From: Spinacia oleracea
Lineage: Eukaryota; Streptophyta; Magnoliopsida; Caryophyllales; Amaranthaceae
Assembly (NCBI RefSeq): GCF_020520425.1
Contig: NC_079491.1
Span: 5,939,143 to 6,003,142 of the forward strand
Direction of reading: 5' to 3'
DNA: 64,000 bases
The notes beneath the pieces were generated by a model. The model searched no databases and was not told the DNA's origin. It saw only the letters and a program-made list of their open reading frames with translations. Numbering within the stretch: the stretch's first letter is position 1; the number at the start of each line of letters is the position of its first letter. The position numbers and the translations under genes are program-made. Shown in pieces: positions 7,085 through 48,801 of the stretch.

Positions 7085-7656
7085 ACGACCAAACCGAAAC
7101 TGATCTTTTTGCCTATATCATCATGCTGCACAAGTCCCCCTCAAATTTGGATCACCTTTTGTCGGTGTGTTAAAGCAACTGAATGAAGGGTAGATCATCT
7201 CATCTTATAGATGATATACAAGTTACAAACTTGCAATACAGAGTATCAGGATTTAGAAGAGGTCAATAGAGAGTATATCAGGATTTCAGGAGAGGCCGAG
7301 TACTCGTTTTTCTGCTGGGTAGATGCTGATATGAAATCATATGACGACAACACTTTCCGGTGTGTGTCATTATACATATACCCTACTAGTCAAAAGATAA
7401 AATGGCTGATATTTGTATTTTGTCTAGTTAGAAAGATTAGGGTTTACTCAGTGATGTAGAGGGTAGCTGGAAATTTTATCTTGTTGTAGGGGATTTAGTG
7501 TAATGCACTGTTATTTATTTTGCACTTGCTTATGTTACTGGGTTTTGTTGAATAGTTCCGGTTTTTGTATGAACCCATTAATTATACGATCTGTGGCGAC
7601 CAATCTGGGCTTTTCTTTGATAATGGCTGATATTCATGTAATTGTGTATGTAACAA

Positions 7657-7983
7657 CAAAAGGTCTTGCGCGCACAAGGTGTACAATAAATTTATTGTAC
7701 ACCAAGATAACTTTTATGCAGTTTTTTGTAACTTTAACCTATTTTTCTGTAACTTTTATATTATAAAATTAAAAAGTTGATAGATAAACATTTTAAAGGG
7801 TTAAATGATTAATTTATACATTATTAGTGATTTTGAAGAAATAATTTTTATTCAAATGAAAGAATTTATCATTAAAAAATAGATAACTTTTACATATATA
7901 AATGTAACTTTTAAGCATTTTTAGTCAACTTTTACTCTGGTATACAATATTTATTGTACACCCATTATAAGTAAGAATTTGTG
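7657..7983. mobile_element. Mutator-type MITE with palindromic ends, copy 1
   Basis: A 327-bp element flanked by a perfect 9-bp duplication ATGTAACAA (7648-7656 and 7984-7992), the length typical of Mutator-like elements. The termini are imperfect inverted repeats of roughly 45 bp sharing the block GGTGTACAATAAAT. Each terminus is also a palindrome by itself: 7678-7703 is a perfect 26-bp palindrome and 7939-7962 a slightly imperfect one. There is no coding capacity. A second full copy lies at 47205-47535 and a truncated one at 48252-48441. Confidence 0.8.
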
Positions 7984-8408
7984 ATGTAACAAATCCTCTG
8001 AAACTGGAACTGTGCTTTTTCAAATGGAGCAATTGTTTTCCCAGAATTAAGTAACCCCTACATAAATAACACTGTTATTATGAAAATAATTAAGTGACCT
8101 TTACATACCCACAGAGTACTCATTATTACTCGTACCTTACTATTAGTTTCATATGCACGCGATGCACTATTGCAAGGATCTTAACTAATATCAAAATGTT
8201 GTCCTCTTATAGTAATACTACTGTATTTGATATTTAACTTTGAGACTATAATATTATAGCAAAATATTTCATGGTATTGCTCGAAAAGACTTTAGAGAAG
8301 TTTAATACGAGTATATTTTAATGTTTTGGAGTTTAGATTGATAATCATTATACATAAGTTACGAAAAAAATTAAAATAAAACTGCATAACCTTTGTAAAA
8401 ATGTACAA

Positions 8409-22900: not shown

Positions 22901-25900
22901 AAATTGGTTAGCTGGATTGTAAGTTAAGTCAACTACCTTTAGATTTTGAGCAGGAACCGAGCTTCTTAGTGAAAAGCTCTGGTTTGATGTTTTCCTTTAG
23001 TGACCTAGCTCTAGAATCTAGATCATGCTTTGACTTTTATGTTATCTTTTCTTTTCTATGTTAGGATGCTGCAGAGTATGCAGAATGCGAAGCTGTAGTG
23101 AAAGACTATCCTCCTTTCATTGAAGCAATGAGGAAGAGGGGAGTTGAGAATATGGATCTAGTGATGGTAGATCCTTGGTTAGTTGAAATTTCACATCATT
23201 TCTTTGTTGTATATAAATTTGGAACTTTGGCTGTATCTCTTTCTTTATCCTTATGCTTGAAACTCTATTATAGGTGTGTTGGATATCACAGTGAAGCAGA
23301 TTTACCAAGTAGGAGACTTGCGAAACCACTTATATTTTGTAGAACGGAGAGTGAATGCCCGATGGAGAATGGCTATGCACGACCTGTTGAGGGCATTCAT
23401 GTTCTTGTTGATTTGCAAAACATGGTAATTCTTGAGTTTGAGGATCGCAAATTTGTCCCCCTCCCATCTGCAGATCCTTTGAGAAACTACACGTCGGGTG
23501 AGACTAGAGGTGGAAATGATCGTAGTGACGTGAAGCCCCTCCATATACTTCAGCCCGAAGGCCCAAGCTTTCGTGTTGATGGGTACTTTGTTCGGTGGCA
23601 GAAGGTATATATGTCTGTGTATTTCCTATCTATGAACTGTTCTATACCAAAAATTGACACATGCTATTCTTCAATTGATTGTTTGCAGTGGAATTTCCGT
23701 GTAGGTTTTACTCCTAGAGAAGGCTTGGTTTTATATTCTGTGGCATATTTAGATGGTAGTCGAGGTCGGAGGTCTGTAGCTCATAGACTGAGTTTTGTTG
23801 AGATGGTTGTCCCGTATGGGGACCCACACGAGCCACATTACAGAAAAAATGCATTTGATGCTGGTGAAGATGGCCTTGGAAAAAATGCTCATTCTCTTAA
23901 GAAGGTAAAGAACCTCTTTTCTACCTACTATTCCCCTAATATAGGTGCCAACTTACTCACCTCCGACCATTTTTTCTCTGACATACGTGTTTTACCAGGG
24001 ATGCGATTGCCTAGGCTTTATTAAATACTTTGATGCTCACTTCACAACTTTCACTGGGGAGGTAGAGACAATCGAAAATTGTGTTTGTCTACATGAAGAA
24101 GATCATGGGATTTTATGGAAGCATCAAGATTGGAGAACTGGTTTAGCAGAAGTTAGGAGATCCAGAAGGCTCACTGTTTCTTTTATTTGTACAGTTGCTA
24201 ATTATGAGTATGGGTTCTATTGGCACTTTTATCAGGCAAGTAGACATTGTCTTTGTTGTTCAACTGTGTCCAAATAGCTAGGTTTCTTTGTTCACTCTTA
24301 GTGATGCATTACCACAAGGATTCTTTGTTATTTTGATGACCAAAAATCCTCCTTTATGTGATAATATACTGGATTAGTTATTGAAAGGTTTTGTTTACAT
24401 TATACTTGTCAATTTTGGAGCTTGCTATTCCTAGTTTCTATTTCTTTTCCATGTGGATTCCAGTTCTCTTCTGGTACTCTGTTAACAGCAGGTAGTTAAA
24501 GCTATTTTCTCATGGTTCCATTCACCTGTTTTCTGACTTTGAATTTTTCGTATATAGGATGGAAAAATCGAAGCAGAAGTTAAACTCACCGGAATTCTCA
24601 GCTTAGGTGCCATTTCACCAGGAGAGTCCCGAAAGTATGGTACAGTTATTGCCCCTGGATTGTATGCACCTGTCCACCAACACTTCTTTGTCGCTCGTAT
24701 GGACATGGCAGTTGATTGCAAGCCTGGGGAGGCACTTAATCAGGTATGCTGCTGTCAGATATTTCAATTCATTGCTTAATGGATGGGTGCATGAATTTTG
24801 TTGATGCAGTTACTGGTAGTCATTGGATGGTCTCGAATTACATGTAATGGCAAGACGTGAAAAATGCATGTTTAAACTTTGTTGCTCGAGTAGAGTACTT
24901 CAGTTCTCTATGATGTACTTTGTGACGGTGATATCATTTCAGCTTCCTTAAAGTATTATCCTCTTCAAGTTTAAATAAGAAGAAAATAAAAAACCTTTTC
25001 TATTTAGGCCTTTTCCTTATCTGTAACTTTTGCGTGTGTGTGCGCGCAGTAGAATAAATGTAACACCCCAACCCTTAATTTGGGTGGAGCCAATTGTCAC
25101 GAAATGAGCATCTTGGACCAATAACTGGCCCCACATACCACCACAAGTTCTTCCAGCGCATTTTGTCCTCACTCATGCGCACCCCGGAAAACTTCTTAGG
25201 AGGTCACCCATCCTAAGATTACTCCCAGCCAAGCACGCTTAACTGTGGAGTTTCTTGGAATACGGGCTCCCTAAAAGAAATGTGCACCTTGGTGGTATAA
25301 GTATATAGAACATTGAGTCCTTTCAAAGCAAAGCAAGGGGATTATGATCACCCCCACTTAGGATCGCAACAGCCTGGAAACTGAAATCCAGCCTTAGGTT
25401 GGAAGTTGCGCTAGGTGACTAACCTTGGATCATAAATCCACAGAATCAGTTCACTGATGCAGAGCTATAGGTTTTAGTACTAAATTGGTTAAGGTTAAAT
25501 AAATATTAGGATCTTTAAAATGAATTAATTAGGAATTAAAACTTGGAAAAGCCGGTAGTGAGATTGAACAACGTTTATCATGCTTTTATGTGCTATCTAT
25601 TTTGGTATTTTATTATGTATTTACATGTTAGTATTTTGTGTTGTAGATGAGTTCTATTCCCTACTTGCCTAGTTACGAGAATATACTTGAAGAATTTGAT
25701 GCTTGGGTATAGGGAGAAGAAGTATGGTTAAAATACATAAAAGATTCATATGTATTACACTCGTTAAATACGAAGTATATGAAGGAATTAAGATAGAGCC
25801 TATGTCCCCTCATGCATCTACAAGAAACCAAGAAGAGTACCTAGAAATAAAGGAAATGCCACTACCAGATTTGTCTAGTGTAATTGAATGCTTTTGTGCT

Positions 25901-28900
25901 TTCTGTTAAGGGGAAAAGATTGATGTAGTGTTGAGTGACAATGAGGAAACCCTCGGCAAATGCCCTCTTTTGGGGGAGGAAGTTAAGGGAATTTTTAATT
26001 AGGAATTGTTTTGAGTTATGTTAAAGAACCATGAATCGAATTATAGTTTGAAATGTTAAACGTATACTTACTCTAAAATAAAATTTAAATGATGGTTGTT
26101 ATTTGTGATGAATTTGAATACCTCTGTATGATTTTATTTTGATTTATATGTGATGATTATATGTTTAGAATTCGTAATAATGGGGTAAGGGGGGTAAGTA
26201 ATTAGTGGATTCTTTTCTTGTGGTAGATGGAGGATCACCCAATGTACCCCTACAACCTAAGAATGGAAGCACATGAGGACATAGGAGACTACGTAGAAAG
26301 AATAGGAGACCGTTGTGATGATTGGGGAAATCACATAGGAGGCTTCAACAACTATAACATATCCTCTAGAAGAATAGACGTCCTACTTAAAACCATCCCA
26401 CGCTATGAGCCTTGGGTCCCCATTATTGAAATGTACAGCGATGTTCTCACAAAGGAAGGGGAGACCAACCCAACCAAATATAGATATGAGGGTAGATGGA
26501 TCCTTAATCTCGAGTATGTGGCAACGAGATTGATGGAAGCTTGGTCGGAGTGGGAATATGAGGACGAGATGGGGGAAGTGATCGATGTGGAACCACCTAT
26601 GCTAGAGGATAAAGAAATGGGGGTGAGAGGGATGAGGTGGAAGAGGATATGCTAGAAGATCCCCCAATAGAAGAAGTACCCCTAGCCGAAGAGGAAGACC
26701 CTGAAGAGGAAGACCTCGAAGAGGATATGACTACATATGTTTCATGAGTGACCACATGATCTCACTAATTGTTCACTTGTCTTCAAGTCTCTTCGAAATC
26801 TCACTCATCGAACTCTTCTTCAGGGTCTTCTTATTCGAGGTCTTCCTCTTCGTAGTCTTCAGGGTCTTCTTATTCGAGGTCTTCCTCTTCGTAGTCTTCC
26901 TCTTCAGAATCTTCCTCTTCTCTTTTGCTAGGGGTACTTCTTCTATTGGGGGATCTTCTAACATCCTCTTCCACCTCATCCCTCTCACCTCCCGTTTCTT
27001 CATCCTCTGGCATAGGTGGTTCCGCATCGATCACTTCTCCCATCTCGTCCTCATATTCCCACTCCGACCAAGCTTCCATCAATCTCGTTGCCACATACTC
27101 GAGATTAAGGATCCATCTACCCTCATATCTATATTTGGTTAGGTTGGTTTCCCCTTCCTCTGTGAGAACATCACTGTACATTTCAATAATGAGTACCCAA
27201 GGCTCATAGCGTGGGATGGTTTTAAGTAGGACGTCTATTCTTCTAGAGGATATGTTATAGTTGTTGAAGCCTCCTATGAGATTTCCTCAATGATCACAAC
27301 GGTCTCCTACTCTTTCTACATAGTCTCCTATGTCCTCATGTGCTTCCATTCTTAGGTTGTAGGGGTACATTGGGTGATCCTCCATCTACCACAAGAAAAG
27401 AAGACACTAATTACTTACCCCCCTTACCCCATTATTACGAATTCTAAACATATAATCATCACATATAAATCAAAATAAAATCATATAGAGGTATTTAAAT
27501 TCATCACAAATAACAACCATCATTTAAATTTTATTTTAGAGTAAGTATACGTTTAACATTTCAAACCTACGTTACTCCGACACTTCGTCTGACGGCGTGT
27601 GTCGGTGTCGACACGACCCGACCCGCGACACGACACTCGACACGTGTCCGGGGAGGTGTCGACACCGGTGTCGAAAAAGAGTCCGGAATGCAGTGTCGGA
27701 ATCGGGTGGAGAGAAGAAAAGAGTAAAAAATTTCAAAACCCTAGATCTAGCAATTGGAGGTCGGGGAAGGCGGGAGAAGAAAAAATATATTAGGGCTTTT
27801 GTTGGTTAAGAAAAATCGACCAACATGCACTCTTTTATTCTTGTTTTCATCGATTATTCACTTCTTGTATCAGCCATGGATATTGGTGTCTTCTTCCTTC
27901 TTCCCGTTAGTTTTTCCGTTTTGTGCGAGTGGTGGTTGACTGATTGAGTGATTGGGCTTTGTACCTTTTTTCTTTTTTTTCTTTTTTTTTTACCCTTAAT
28001 AAATAAACTACGGAGTAGGTTGTGGGTTTTGTGGGGAAGTGGAACACCCACGTGATATCTTTACCAAAAAATCTCAACTTTCCGCTTTTCTGATTTTTAT
28101 TTATTATTATTTATTTTTAAATTTTTTTTTTAACTTTTAAACCCTCTAGGACTGTTCAATTTTATCCATTTTTAAACCCTTTTAATGATCTTCTATCGTA
28201 ATTTTAAACGTTATATTTTTTTTTATTATTTTAACTTTTGATCTTCAATTTTTTTTATTTAATAACCATTTTATATTTTTATAAAAAGTGTCGATTTTTT
28301 ACCCGACACTTTATAAGGGACCCGTGTCTAAAAAATAAGTCAAGACACTCCTTTGACCGTGTCGGAGTGTCGGTAAATATTTGGATCGGAGTGTCAGATA
28401 CTCCGACACCCGTGTCCGACACGACACCGACACCCGTGTCTGAGCAACATAGTTTCAAACTATAATTCGATTCATGTTTCTTTAACATAACTCAAAACAA
28501 TTCCTAATTAAAAATACCCTTAACTTCCTCCCCAAAAAGAGGGCATTTGCTGAGGGTTTCCTTATTATCGCTCAACACTACATTAATCTTTTCCCCTGAA
28601 CAGAAAGCACAAAAGCATCCAGTTACACTAGACAAATCTGGTAGTGGCATTTCCTTTATTTCTAGGTCCTCTTCTTGGTTTCTTGTAGATGCAGGAGGGG
28701 ACATAGGCTCTATCTTAATTCCTTCATATACTTCGTATTTAACGAGTGTAATACATATAAATCTTCTATGTATTTTAACCATACTTCTTCTCCCTATACC
28801 CAAGCATCAAATTCTTCAAGTATATTCTCGTAACTAGGCAAGTAGGGTATAGAACTCATCTACAACACAAAATACTAACATGTAAATACATAATAAAACA

Positions 28901-31900
28901 CCAAAATAGATAGCACATAAAATCATGATAAACGTCGCTCAATCTCATTAGCGGCTTTTCCAAGTTTTAAATCCTAATTAATTCATTTTAAAGATCCTAA
29001 TATTTATTCAACCTTAACCAATTTAGTCCTAAAACCTATAGCTCTGGATCAGTGTACTAAAACCTATAGCTCTGGTATAAGTAGTACATTGAATCCTTTT
29101 AAAGCAAAGCAGGGGGATTACATTAAAATCCTCCCCTCCTGTAGGGTTTTGTTACAACCTTTCCACCTCCTATAAGTATTGAACCCCTGACACTAGTGAT
29201 GGAGATGTAGGTACTAACTGGTGCTCCAGCCTCCACTTCTTTACTCTCAATGATCTATAGCTGCCTCTTTTGAATTGTTGCTGGCCTCTCCATGTATATT
29301 GGATGGAGATATTCTCGACCTTTCTTCTTTACTTCATTCAGATTATTTTTATTGGTAAAGTTTGTATAAAAAGAAATAAGAAAGAAGTGTACGCAACTAA
29401 ATGAACATTTTTGATTCATTATATTATAATCTAAAGCTAAAAAAAACCCGAGGTATTTGGCTCCAGTGGATATGGGTGAGGAATGAAAGGTGATTGCTTA
29501 TGGGAATTGGCAATGAGCTTCCATTTTTCCTTTATTAAGTCATTCTAAAGACCTCCATGCCCTTGTTTATTGTGCGATCTCATGTTTGCAAAATCAGTAC
29601 ACTGCATAAGTTTTCTGGGATAGATTGTTGCAAGCAGGACAGATTCAAGCTGAAATTTCTGCTGCCAAGTGATATGCTCAAACTTGATCCTGCATCAGAT
29701 TAAGAATTTAAGATATAAATGTGAAATGGTTGAGTACACACTCTGATGCAGTGCTTTGATTCCTCTGCATTATTTCTCCCTCCACTTTAGCAAAGTACTA
29801 TTCTTTTTCTTGCTTCAGTAACTTTTTATGTTTAATTTTTTGAAAAATAAATAAGGGAAAATAAATTTATCATTGCTAATACACCAAACAAAAAAAAAAA
29901 TCTACCCTAATAAAAAACAGTTCTAGACACCATTACAAATTTCAACTTCTATTTTACTAATGGCTTTACTTCCATTCGGCTTTAACACCATGCCACATTT
30001 TTTTACCATGAATTATCATTGATGGAAAAACATCTTCCAGCTTTTCAATTTTGCAAACACGCAAAATTCTCACAATAGGGGAGACAATGATTCTCATCAT
30101 AGAGAAACAAATTACTCTCAGGAGATATCTTATAGGTCAAACAAATAAAATAAATGGAAGAACAATAATAGTAAAAAAAATTAGCCACTCCAAAGGAGAT
30201 ATCTTATGGCAACAGGGTTTGGTGAAGAGACGAGGGGCCAAGAAAATGTAAGTGAAGGCTTGCTAGACTAAGTTATATGCTAGTATTTATTTATTTAATA
30301 TGAAACGCAAGATATAAGTATGATAGACACTGAATGCCTTATGGCTTATTCTTCTACAGGTTGTTGAGGTGAATGTCAAAGTTGAAGATCCAGGTCAGCA
30401 TAATGTCCATGATAATGCTTTCTATGCTGAGGAGAGTATTCTGAGATCTGAATTAGAAGCAATGCGTGATTGCAATCCTTTATCTGCTCGGCATTGGATT
30501 GTAAGGAACCTAGACTTTGTATAGTTTATTGTTATTGTGTGTGCTCATGATCTGGCTATCTTTTCTTTCAAATTGCAAGCCCGAAAACTTCTTGTTTGTC
30601 TGACCTAGTATTTCATTCAATAGTTGTTTACTTTTCTGTCACTCCATTCCCAACACATAGAGATGATTCCAACGAACTAATTCTTAGCTAGCTTTGTTTG
30701 AGATACTAACTATAAGAAGAAGTGAAGAGGGAAAAGAAAAGCAGGAATGGGAAACAGAAGTTCAAAACCACTCTTCTATATTATAGTAGCTAGGGACCTT
30801 GCTTTGGTAGTACTTTTTATTTTATAGTTAATCTTTTTCTTCTAAATTATTTTTAGGTGCGGCGGGTAGAAGCTTTTGATGATATGTTTAAGTGTATAAC
30901 ACTAGATCAGATTTTATAGTTCTGACGGGTTTTGGTTTCTGTTCTGACGGGCTTTCGTTTTGGTTTCTGACGGGTTTTCGTTTTGGTTACATTCCTTTAG
31001 CACTTTGGTCACTATATGTTTTGGAACATATACCATGGATTCAACCCTCACTCTCTTTTGCTTGAAAATGCTTTTTCTTTTTTTCCGGACAGAGTGGAAA
31101 AGGATTATGTTAGTACTTTTTGTTGAATGTTTTAGTTTGGAACCTACTTCATAAGCTTAATTGACCTTCTTCCCCCTTGTAGGAGAGAAAATCCACTGGG
31201 ATATTTAATCATTCACAGATATAAATTTATCAATGTTATGCTTAAATGACAGATTGTTACATTTGCCTCTTTGTAGGTGAGAAATACTAGGACTGTTAAT
31301 AGAACAGGAGAGCTGACAGGATACAAGCTGGTACCTGGTTCGAATTGTTTGCCCCTGGCTGGTTCCGATGCTAAATTTTTGAGAAGAGCTGCTTTCTTGA
31401 AGCATAATCTTTGGGTTACAGAATATGCTTCTGATGAAATGTTTCCTGGAGGAGAGTTTCCAAATCAGAATCCACGAGTTGGTGAAGGATTGGCCACTTG
31501 GGTTAAGAAGAACCGGTCTCTGTCTGAAAGTGACGTAGTGCTTTGGTTAGTTCTTTTTCTTTACTTTCAAGGCGAACATTTCATTATAATAAAAATAAAA
31601 AATAAAATCTTTCAGCCTAATCCTTGTATTGGAGTATGCGTGTATATTCGTTCTGTTGGCATTGCACCCAATTTGAACACATCTTCTCTGTTCATTAATT
31701 AAAAAGGTAAATGAGCCGGAACTTTGTGCACACGTTTAGCAAATCAACTGCTATATGGTAGGAAGTTTTAAAGCTAATGGTAACTATTAGTTTGAAAATG
31801 TGTGGAACAGGATACCAAATTCACAAAGTGAACCAGCTTAGCTACATTTTGCATTGAACCCTTTTTTGATAGGACAGTGATACATGTAGCCAGCAATTGA

Positions 31901-46992: not shown

Positions 46993-47204
46993 TAAAATTT
47001 ATAAAGAAAAAAAAACTCTGTAGATAATTTTTAAGTGTACTAGCATGATTATAAGAATATATATTGATTTTTCTTTTAAATATACATATGAATTCATTAT
47101 CACAAACACCATTTGTACCAAACGGGACGTGAAGGGAAAAAGAATTTTGACGACCCGGTCAGTGAGTAGAAATTTTTAAAAATAGAGAAGCCACTAATTC
47201 CATA

Positions 47205-47535
47205 CAAAAGGTCTTGCGCGTACAAGGTGTACGTACAATAAATTTATTGTACACCAAGATTATTATTAAGCAGTTTTTTGTAACTTTGAACTATTTTTCT
47301 GTAACTGTTATATTATAAAATTAAAAAGTTGATAGATAAACATTTTAAAGGGTTAAATGATTAATTTATACATTATTAGTGATTTTGAGGAAATAATTTT
47401 TATTCAAATGAAAAAATTTATCATTAAAAAATAGATAACTTTTACATATATAAATGTAACTTTTAAGCATTTTAAGTCAACTTTTACTCCGGTATACAAT
47501 ATTTATTATACACCCATTATAAATAAGAATTTGTG
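47205..47535. mobile_element. Mutator-type MITE with palindromic ends, copy 2
   Basis: A 331-bp copy of the element at 7657-7983, more than 90% identical by eye. The flanks are AATTCCATA (47196-47204) and ACTTCCATA (47536-47544), a 9-bp duplication with one change. A four-base GTAC insertion interrupts the left palindrome. Confidence 0.8.
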
Positions 47536-47689
47536 ACTTCCATATTACTCCGTACGCTATACAGTTTTTTTTTTCTTTTTAAAAATAAAAAAAATTAACA
47601 GCATAGCTACACTTAATCATACAGTATTCTCCATAATGTGGAGTGGACTTATCTCCATATTACTGTAGTATACAGTTTCTATCATAATT

Positions 47690-47955: not shown

Positions 47956-48251
47956 CATTAATGTAACTTCCACATTGATAAATTAAATAACTACACAAAT
48001 ATACAGATCGTTATTAATAATATAATAATTGTCTGAAATTATAAAAGTTATAATATTATTTCCAACCAGAATATATTATATTTAGAAGAAATAATTATTT
48101 TCAAAAGAATTTCAAAATTATTATGCATCGAAAATGAATGGAGTACTTAATTACGATTAAAGAAAACGTTATATTTTGCTTCTTCTAAACCACTGTAGAA
48201 ATGCTAAAACGACAATGACATAAGAACAAACAGAGTAATACGGAGTATATC

Positions 48252-48441
48252 AAAAGGCCTTGCGCGCATCTGGTGTTCAGCAAATTTATTGTACATCAGT
48301 ATATTTTAACCCCTTTTTTTTTGGTAACTTTTAACATCCTATTTTGTTTAACTTTTTATATGATGAAATATTTTTTTATGGATAAACTTGTTAAATTGTT
48401 ACATGAATAACTTTATACATTATTAATGATTCTGAAGAGAT
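48252..48441. mobile_element. truncated third copy of the Mutator-type MITE
   Basis: It begins CAAAAGGCCTTGCGCGCA, diverged from copies 1 and 2, and follows them through TTATACATTATTAATGATTC. It then breaks off at an AT microsatellite (about 48443-48461). It lies about 350 bp upstream of the armadillo gene start. Confidence 0.65.
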
Positions 48442-48801
48442 AATATATATATATATATATATACTTCATTCGTTTTTTTTTTAAATGACACATTTAAACT
48501 TTTGTCACTATTTATTTAAACTATTTGACTATCAATTGTGATATTTTAAGAAAAAATATAGTCACGTGGAGTCTTGTTATAAACGTCTCATTGTATAGAT
48601 TTATAATGTCAATTTATTGACCAATTGAGTTGACTCTACATTTATCTTACAATATTATTTGTAAATCGACCTTAAATAAGAGTTTGTGGTAATATATTTC
48701 AATTATTAATACACAAAACACAAAAAACATTCCTTCTAAAAATACCCCATTCCGCGATCCACGCCCATAATTTCTCTCTCCTCCTCAAACCCCCCAAAAT
48801 A

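What the first reader, a model, noticed from the sequence alone, without database searches (positions are those of the whole stretch)
25057..29156. Long inverted repeat with unknown coding sequence between 5S-bearing LTR sequences, inside an amine oxidase intron
About 4 kb in intron 8 is an LTR with an embedded 5S rRNA segment, then a left arm, a spacer of about 90 bp, an inverted right arm, and a partial LTR in the same orientation as the first. Cassandra elements normally have a very short interior without genes, so an inverted-duplicated interior with conserved reading stretches is unusual. It may be a new non-autonomous element type or a captured gene duplicated during abortive repair.
Basis: partly seen in the sequence, partly recalled or inferred. 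Interest (0 to 1): 0.85.

Follow-up and report, generated by a model that had tools for sequence, protein, structure and literature searches.

The report
Chimeric Cassandra with inverted chromovirus leader
In an intron of a plant amine oxidase gene sits an old jumping-gene chimera: a miniature 5S-bearing retrotransposon (Cassandra) whose inside was filled by a back-to-back copy of the front end of an unrelated, much larger retrotransposon, which hints that the two were once copied together in one particle.

Summary
Window 25059-29122 is one Cassandra-flanked unit on the minus strand, inside a copper amine oxidase intron. It has a full 3' LTR with exact 5S boxes, a polypurine tract, a two-armed interior and a 50-bp 5'-LTR remnant; candidate 5-bp target duplications match at 4 of 5 bases. 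The arms differ at about 4% of sites. The right arm also carries an 886-bp insertion with an 8-bp duplication.

The arms are not a captured host gene. They are the primer-site-to-leader segment, with two small accessory ORFs, of a Ty3/gypsy family here called X. X has its own ~2-kb LTRs and other copies in the same genome. X homology starts at the tRNA-Met primer site in both arms; neither the turn at 26725/26726 nor the left junction was crossed by any other match scored.

Best reading: template switching between Cassandra and X in one reverse-transcription event, with a fold-back, then integration. Later DNA repair is the main rival. Some Cassandra and most X copies read share 11 bp at the LTR end; 3 of 40 other primer sites sampled have it too, so X-like elements are candidates for Cassandra's unknown partner. 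One copy found: a new variant of a known kind, moderate interest.

The parts
25054..25058 (.). candidate target-site duplication, left (ATAAA)
   Evidence: Sequence read directly; 4 of 5 bases equal 29123-29127; chance of at least 4 of 5 at fixed positions about 1.6% (own arithmetic)
25059..25346 (-). Cassandra 3' LTR (reads ...GGTTGGGGTGTTACA at its end on the minus strand)
   Evidence: 27 non-self LTR-side matches in the same genome, 75-95%
25202..25244 (-). 5S-derived box A - N18 - box C (pol III promoter motif of Cassandra)
   Evidence: exact match, only one in the window, 0.02 expected
25347..25459 (-). 3' part of Cassandra's short interior with polypurine tract AAGTGGGGGTGAT
   Evidence: interior piece also in L009-L012; the tract before an LTR in L009 and L010, lost in L011 and L012
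25460..26725 (+). left arm: X leader from primer site through two accessory ORFs; X sense on the + strand
   Evidence: 82-88% to X copies; 19 of 22 non-self arm-side matches start at 25457-25463
26726..26815 (-). 'spacer': end of the longer right copy, X sequence beyond accessory ORF 2 (right border approximate)
   Evidence: aligned to 3 X copies up to 26727; 7 X places start at 26725/26726
26816..29047 (-). right arm: same X leader segment, X sense on the - strand; interrupted by 27567-28452 (left border approximate)
   Evidence: 95-96% to left arm, 81-89% to X copies
27567..28452 (.). 886-bp insertion in the right arm with short imperfect inverted ends (CTACGTTACTC / CTATGTTGCTC) and 8-bp duplication TTTCAAAC (27559-27566 / 28453-28460)
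   Evidence: left arm holds the empty site
29048..29072 (-). short second copy of the X primer-site start (AGAGCTATAGGTTTT) plus a 12-nt piece mirrored at the left junction
   Evidence: (D3, I11)
29073..29122 (-). Cassandra 5' LTR remnant (TGTAATCCCC...TATACC); 5S, LTR end and half of the primer site are missing
   Evidence: 86-98% to LTR starts of Cassandra loci L009-L020
29123..29127 (.). candidate target-site duplication, right (TTAAA)

Best explanation
An old chimeric retrotransposon insertion, one copy found. Shown: Cassandra ends flank an inverted duplication of the leader (primer site plus two accessory ORFs) of a Ty3/gypsy element, X. Inferred: the chimera arose when both RNAs were copied in one particle. 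The nascent plus strand began as Cassandra LTR plus primer site. At the shared tRNA-Met primer site it moved onto X's minus-strand cDNA and copied ~1.4 kb. It then folded back at 26726 and copied X in reverse to the primer site. A 7-nt match (GTGTACT) let it rejoin Cassandra cDNA, and it ran through PPT and LTR and was integrated. Later: neutral decay of both arms, loss of most of the 5' LTR, and the 886-bp insertion in one arm.
For: Arms begin at the X primer site in both copies: 19 of 22 non-self arm-side matches start at 25457-25463, the other 3 are shorter and start later, none earlier. No X LTR sequence was found in 25059-29122: upstream 1990 bases of 10 X stretches and the LTR start of one gave no match at E 1e-3 but a 23-bp one inside the 886-bp insertion. 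LTR-then-X-leader order at the right end is what a plus-strand transfer at a shared primer site would give. The turn is a clean breakpoint: 7 X places start and 4 non-self places end at 26725-26726, none of 44 non-self matches crosses. Left junction: none of 54 non-self matches crosses from Cassandra side to X side beyond a few bases. TSD 4 of 5. Arms were one sequence once: 26 of 597 and 19 of 559 sites differ, 23 changes assigned to the left and 20 to the right arm, 2 unresolved; both share 67 states against every X copy with a letter there (10 copies in block 1, 8 in block 2).
Against: TSD is imperfect and the 5' LTR is broken, so one-step integration is not proven. Fold-back plus two switches is a complex path. 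A DNA-repair path could leave the same final structure. Arms are only 81-89% to the X copies compared, so the donor lineage was not found. The primer site of the composite itself is no better than chance and only 4 of the 10 X copies have the exact 12-mer. The 7-nt match is between the right-hand copy and some Cassandras; the left junction itself reads GTGAACT, and the stretch is near-palindromic.
Confidence: 0.55

Rival explanations
1. Post-insertion DNA repair: a plain Cassandra inserted first; later an X leader fragment was patched in during break repair and copied back on itself, with loss of part of the 5' LTR.
For: Broken 5' LTR, a 28-bp tandem duplication and a mirrored 12-nt piece at the right end look like repair scars; the TSD is compatible with either path.
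Against: Both arms start at the X primer site, a natural end point of reverse-transcription intermediates, and no X LTR was found in the unit; a random genomic patch has no reason to start there.
Confidence: 0.3
2. A propagating family of composite elements with arm-spacer-arm interior.
For: The unit has two Cassandra ends and a possible TSD.
Against: No other match scored crosses either junction (40 candidates scored in each); 10 of 10 arm copies read at length have X-type sequence before the primer site, seen repeated at the other end in 6 of the 10 stretches.
Confidence: 0.04
3. Assembly artefact (false inverted join).
For: Only one assembly was available.
Against: Arms differ at about 4%, with changes spread evenly over both arms, and only one arm holds the 886-bp insertion; a false duplicate would be near identical.
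Confidence: 0.03
4. Present-day effect, not exclusive of the origin: transcribed with the host gene, the intron forms a long hairpin whose small RNAs act on X elements, as proposed for Mu killer of maize.
For: Inverted duplication of part of an autonomous element within reach of host-gene transcription is the Mu killer layout (PMC3440606, start of abstract in the listing); 537 of 1247 left-arm 21-mers are exact in the right arm, and 115 of 1247 (left) and 139 of 1381 (right, spacer included) are exact in at least one of 10 X copies.
Against: No RNA data; X copies with 99-100% alike LTR stretches show X was not fully silenced; only about 10% of 21-mers still match.
Confidence: 0.15

Closest known systems
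Cassandra TRIM retrotransposons (5S-bearing LTRs)
   Same: LTR with exact 5S box A/box C, TGTAA...TTACA ends, polypurine tract, LTR and part of the interior as in Cassandras of this genome
   Different: Interior is about 2.8 kb (3.7 kb with the later insertion) and mostly inverted Ty3/gypsy leader instead of a short non-coding piece; 5' LTR and primer site are broken. PMC10853983 reports no remains of coding regions in any Cassandra of its set (passages seen)
TRIMs carrying gene fragments (GmaRetroS15 and others, PMC4717578, sections 13 and 18 read)
   Same: A TRIM whose interior holds foreign coding fragments, between LTRs with TSD
   Different: There host exons, mostly two or more copies, no inverted duplication described in the sections read; here part of another retrotransposon, inverted, one copy found
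Recombinant centromeric retrotransposons of grasses (PMC4079200, passages seen)
   Same: Chimeras between LTR retrotransposons, explained there by copackaging and template switching or by illegitimate recombination
   Different: Those join related subfamilies and proliferate; here a TRIM and a Ty3/gypsy element with unrelated LTR bodies, one copy found
Mu killer of maize (PMC3440606, start of abstract in a search listing)
   Same: Inverted duplication of part of an autonomous element near host-gene transcription
   Different: DNA transposon; silencing reported there, untested here

Membership tests
Cassandra | 5S box A - N18 - box C in the LTR | tested here: met
   exact match at 25202-25244 (-)
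Cassandra | Two LTRs | tested here: inconclusive
   one full (25059-25346), one 50-bp remnant without 5S (29073-29122)
Cassandra | tRNA-Met primer site TGGTATCAGAGC after the 5' LTR | tested here: not met
   only TTATACCAGAGC with 3 mismatches at 29069-29080 (37 such matches in the window, 37.6 expected by chance); exact in L010 and L012, one base off in L009 (first unit) and L011
Cassandra | Polypurine tract before the 3' LTR | tested here: met
   AAGTGGGGGTGAT at 25347-25359 (-), as in L009 and L010
Cassandra | Short interior without coding sequence | tested here: not met
   interior holds two inverted, decayed copies of X accessory ORFs
Cassandra | 5-bp target-site duplication | tested here: inconclusive
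   ATAAA / TTAAA, 4 of 5
Ty3/gypsy chromovirus (source of the arms) | Gag, protease, RT, RNase H, integrase in X | tested here: met
   Pfam on pieces of one copy, L027
Ty3/gypsy chromovirus (source of the arms) | C-terminal chromodomain in X | tested here: inconclusive
   PF00385 E 5e-4, 20.4 bits, cut-off 25.1; clade (Tekay or other) not tested
Ty3/gypsy chromovirus (source of the arms) | pol genes in the window element itself | tested here: not met
   X homology in the arms ends past accessory ORF 2 and before the gag-pol frame
Inverted-repeat silencing locus (Mu killer type) | small RNAs made from the hairpin and loss of target activity | not testable with these tools
   no RNA data

The most novel reading that the evidence does not exclude
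The chimera is a fossil of copackaging: Cassandra, whose autonomous partner is described as unknown (PMC7215508; PMC10886601, passages seen), is copied and integrated in this plant by X-like Ty3/gypsy elements that share its LTR end (GGGGTGTTACA), primer site and TGTAAT start, though not its LTR body. The same locus may act as an intronic hairpin against X.
Probability: 0.3. Interest if true: 0.62.

Novelty: new variant of a known kind. Interest (0 to 1): 0.4.

Why it matters
Which element moves Cassandra, a TRIM described as widespread in vascular plants, is an open question in the passages read. A joint between a Cassandra end and another element's primer-site-proximal leader is the kind of trace that could name the partner, and it gives a concrete test: look for more Cassandra/X-like joints and for Cassandra RNA in X particles. 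If the origin is DNA repair instead, it is a well-resolved example of a fold-back patch inside a TRIM. Either way the locus itself looks like a decayed one-off.

Tried and rejected
Rfam gathering scan of the window gave nothing and the 5S match is below threshold. Pfam on five arm ORFs gave only two matches far below cut-off. Viral contigs and genome-contig scans with the second accessory ORF, a viral-contig scan with a 5S pattern and a plasmid search with the left arm found no relative. AlphaFold on the second accessory ORF (window sequences only) was useless, pLDDT 40, so no fold search was run. The idea that 29126-29240 is a second Cassandra interior was dropped: score 26 against a shuffle median of 20 and maximum of 40. 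The idea that the arms encode gag was dropped: gag-pol is a separate downstream frame in X. Codon-position counts of arm differences (4,5,6 in the second ORF, 4,5,5 in 300 nt of the first) show no bias, but numbers are small; the overall identity figure of that call is not used because the join there was off by a few bases. Control for LTR ends: the first 40 listed exact primer sites, all on C1, were read of 6513 counted (333 for the reversed motif): 3 of 40 have GGGGTGTTACA before the site, 4 TGTTACA, 7 TTACA, and 17 by eye belong to one family ending like CATAACCTAACAG. So the ending is a minority type but not unique to X. Nor is it in every copy: 8 of 10 X stretches, and 3 of the 7 Cassandra LTR ends read before a primer site or its remnant (L009 twice, L012; not L010, L011, L014, L015).
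Full report
What is there. The window lies in an 894-Mb genome of 242 contigs; the matches seen lie on C1-C6. Inside an intron between copper amine oxidase exons (PF01179 at 24558-24743 and 30357-30521; the second match is below the curated cut-off) two inverted arms are confirmed: 606 nt at 95.5% and 686 nt at 95.0%.

Orientation and ends. The Cassandra 5S boxes match exactly on the minus strand at 25202-25244. Four Cassandra loci printed (L009-L012) show the order LTR (TGTAATCCCC...TTACA or a variant) - primer site - short interior - LTR; the primer site is exact in L010 and L012 and one base off in L011 and the first unit of L009; L009 and L010 are tandem, L011 and L012 have a shortened second LTR. 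Read against them, 25059-25346 is a complete 3' LTR, 25347-25459 the end of the Cassandra interior with its polypurine tract, and 29073-29122 the first 50 bp of the 5' LTR. Flanks ATAAA and TTAAA agree at 4 of 5 bases.

What the arms are. A search of the own genome with 25057-26000 gave 57 matches (40 of 124 candidates scored): 3 in this locus, 22 to the arm side, 27 to the Cassandra LTR and 5 to the Cassandra interior piece. Of the 54 non-self matches, those on the Cassandra side end at query 406 or before and those on the arm side start at 401 or later; 19 of the 22 start at 401-407 (window 25457-25463), 3 shorter ones later. Ten copies were read at 10 kb each (L021-L030 of the 22). Before that point all 10 have related sequence ending near TTACA (9 of 10; 8 of 10 GGGGTGTTACA) and a tRNA-Met-type primer site, exact in 4 of 10 and with small changes in the rest. 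In 6 of the 10 stretches the upstream sequence recurs at the far end at 99.1-100% (L025-L030); in L021-L024 it does not within the stretch. For L027 the LTRs are ~2.0 kb, identical over the 1479 bases compared and over 1025 bases at the start, with CCTAT on both flanks. Its long open frame matches Gag, protease, reverse transcriptase, RNase H, integrase and, weakly, a chromodomain. Between primer site and gag-pol lie two short ORFs of about 114 and 172 aa without Pfam match; both are recognisable in the arms. So the arms are the leader of a Ty3/gypsy family, here called X, and not a host gene. No X LTR sequence was found in the composite.

The turn. X homology runs through the 'spacer' to 26727 in three X copies aligned. 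In the search with 26680-26860, 7 X places start at query 46/47 and 4 non-self places end there; none of 44 non-self matches crosses (40 of 161 candidates scored). The longer query (77 matches, 40 of 177 candidates scored) likewise shows only the own locus running through. The composite therefore appears once, within the limits of these searches.

History. The arms differ at 26 of 597 and 19 of 559 sites. With X copies as outgroup (10 in the first block, 8 in the second), 23 changes fall in the left arm, 20 in the right, 2 are unresolved, and both arms share 67 states seen in none of those X copies. Each arm has decayed on its own since the duplication, with no visible codon-position bias, and the donor was an X lineage not among the copies read. 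The LTR piece on the right is 87% to the left LTR over 46 positions, too short to date. The 886-bp insertion came later, in the right arm only. With plant substitution rates recalled from general knowledge (about 0.7-1.3e-8 per site per year) 4% between arms means very roughly 1.5-3 million years.

Mechanism. Shown: the borders, the order and the lack of detectable X LTR sequence. Inferred: Cassandra LTR followed by X's primer-site-proximal leader is what results if Cassandra plus-strand strong-stop DNA transfers to X minus-strand cDNA at the common tRNA-Met primer site; a fold-back gives the antisense arm; the return to Cassandra lies at GTGTACT, present at the end of the right copy (GGATCAGTGTACT) and in the interiors of L010 and L011 (CGTGTACTGAT; L009 and L012 differ by a base or more), while the left junction now reads GTGAACT. 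The rival, patching by break repair, explains the broken right end better and the primer-site start worse.

Partner question. The LTR ends of one Cassandra (L012) and one X (L027) share GGGGTGTTACA, AAA and the primer site in one alignment; LTR starts are TGTAATCCCCC and TGTAATAACCC; LTR bodies show no other match beyond 9-11 bases. The shared ending is in 8 of 10 X stretches and 3 of 7 Cassandra ends read. In 40 tRNA-Met primer sites from the start of C1, 3 have the same ending and 17 by eye belong to one other family; the 3 were not identified and may be other relatives of X or of Cassandra. So the ending is a minority type, compatible with X or a cousin as partner, but not proof. PMC7215508 speaks of '(unknown) autonomous retrotransposon partners' and PMC10886601 of no indication of the responsible family (passages seen). 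My literature searches showed no named partner in the listings; Maiwald 2021 on Amaranthaceae Cassandras is not held and could contain relevant rearranged forms, so no claim of priority is made.

Verdict. A real, well-delimited chimera, most likely an old one-off, interesting mainly as a pointer to who copies Cassandra.

Noticed in passing
L027:2189-3300, also other X stretches L021-L030: X elements carry two short ORFs (about 114 and 172 aa, the second with an acidic EEDPEEE tail) between primer site and gag-pol, without Pfam match; open to different extents in different copies; function unknown.
   Followed up: partly
window 27567-28452: 886-bp insertion with imperfect inverted ends (CTACGTTACTC / CTATGTTGCTC) and 8-bp TSD TTTCAAAC, hAT-like by TSD length only.
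   Followed up: partly
L009:408-1597 (C4:147333907-147335096): Tandem Cassandra: three LTRs and two interiors in a row, as PMC7215508 describes for other plants.
   Followed up: partly
window 7656-7984, 47204-47536, 48251-48444: A repeat of ~330 bp in two to three copies (94.6% between the first two).
   Followed up: no
window 29126-29240: Sequence right of the element has a faint tRNA-like (A-box/B-box) look on the minus strand; could be a SINE remnant; judged by eye only.
   Followed up: partly
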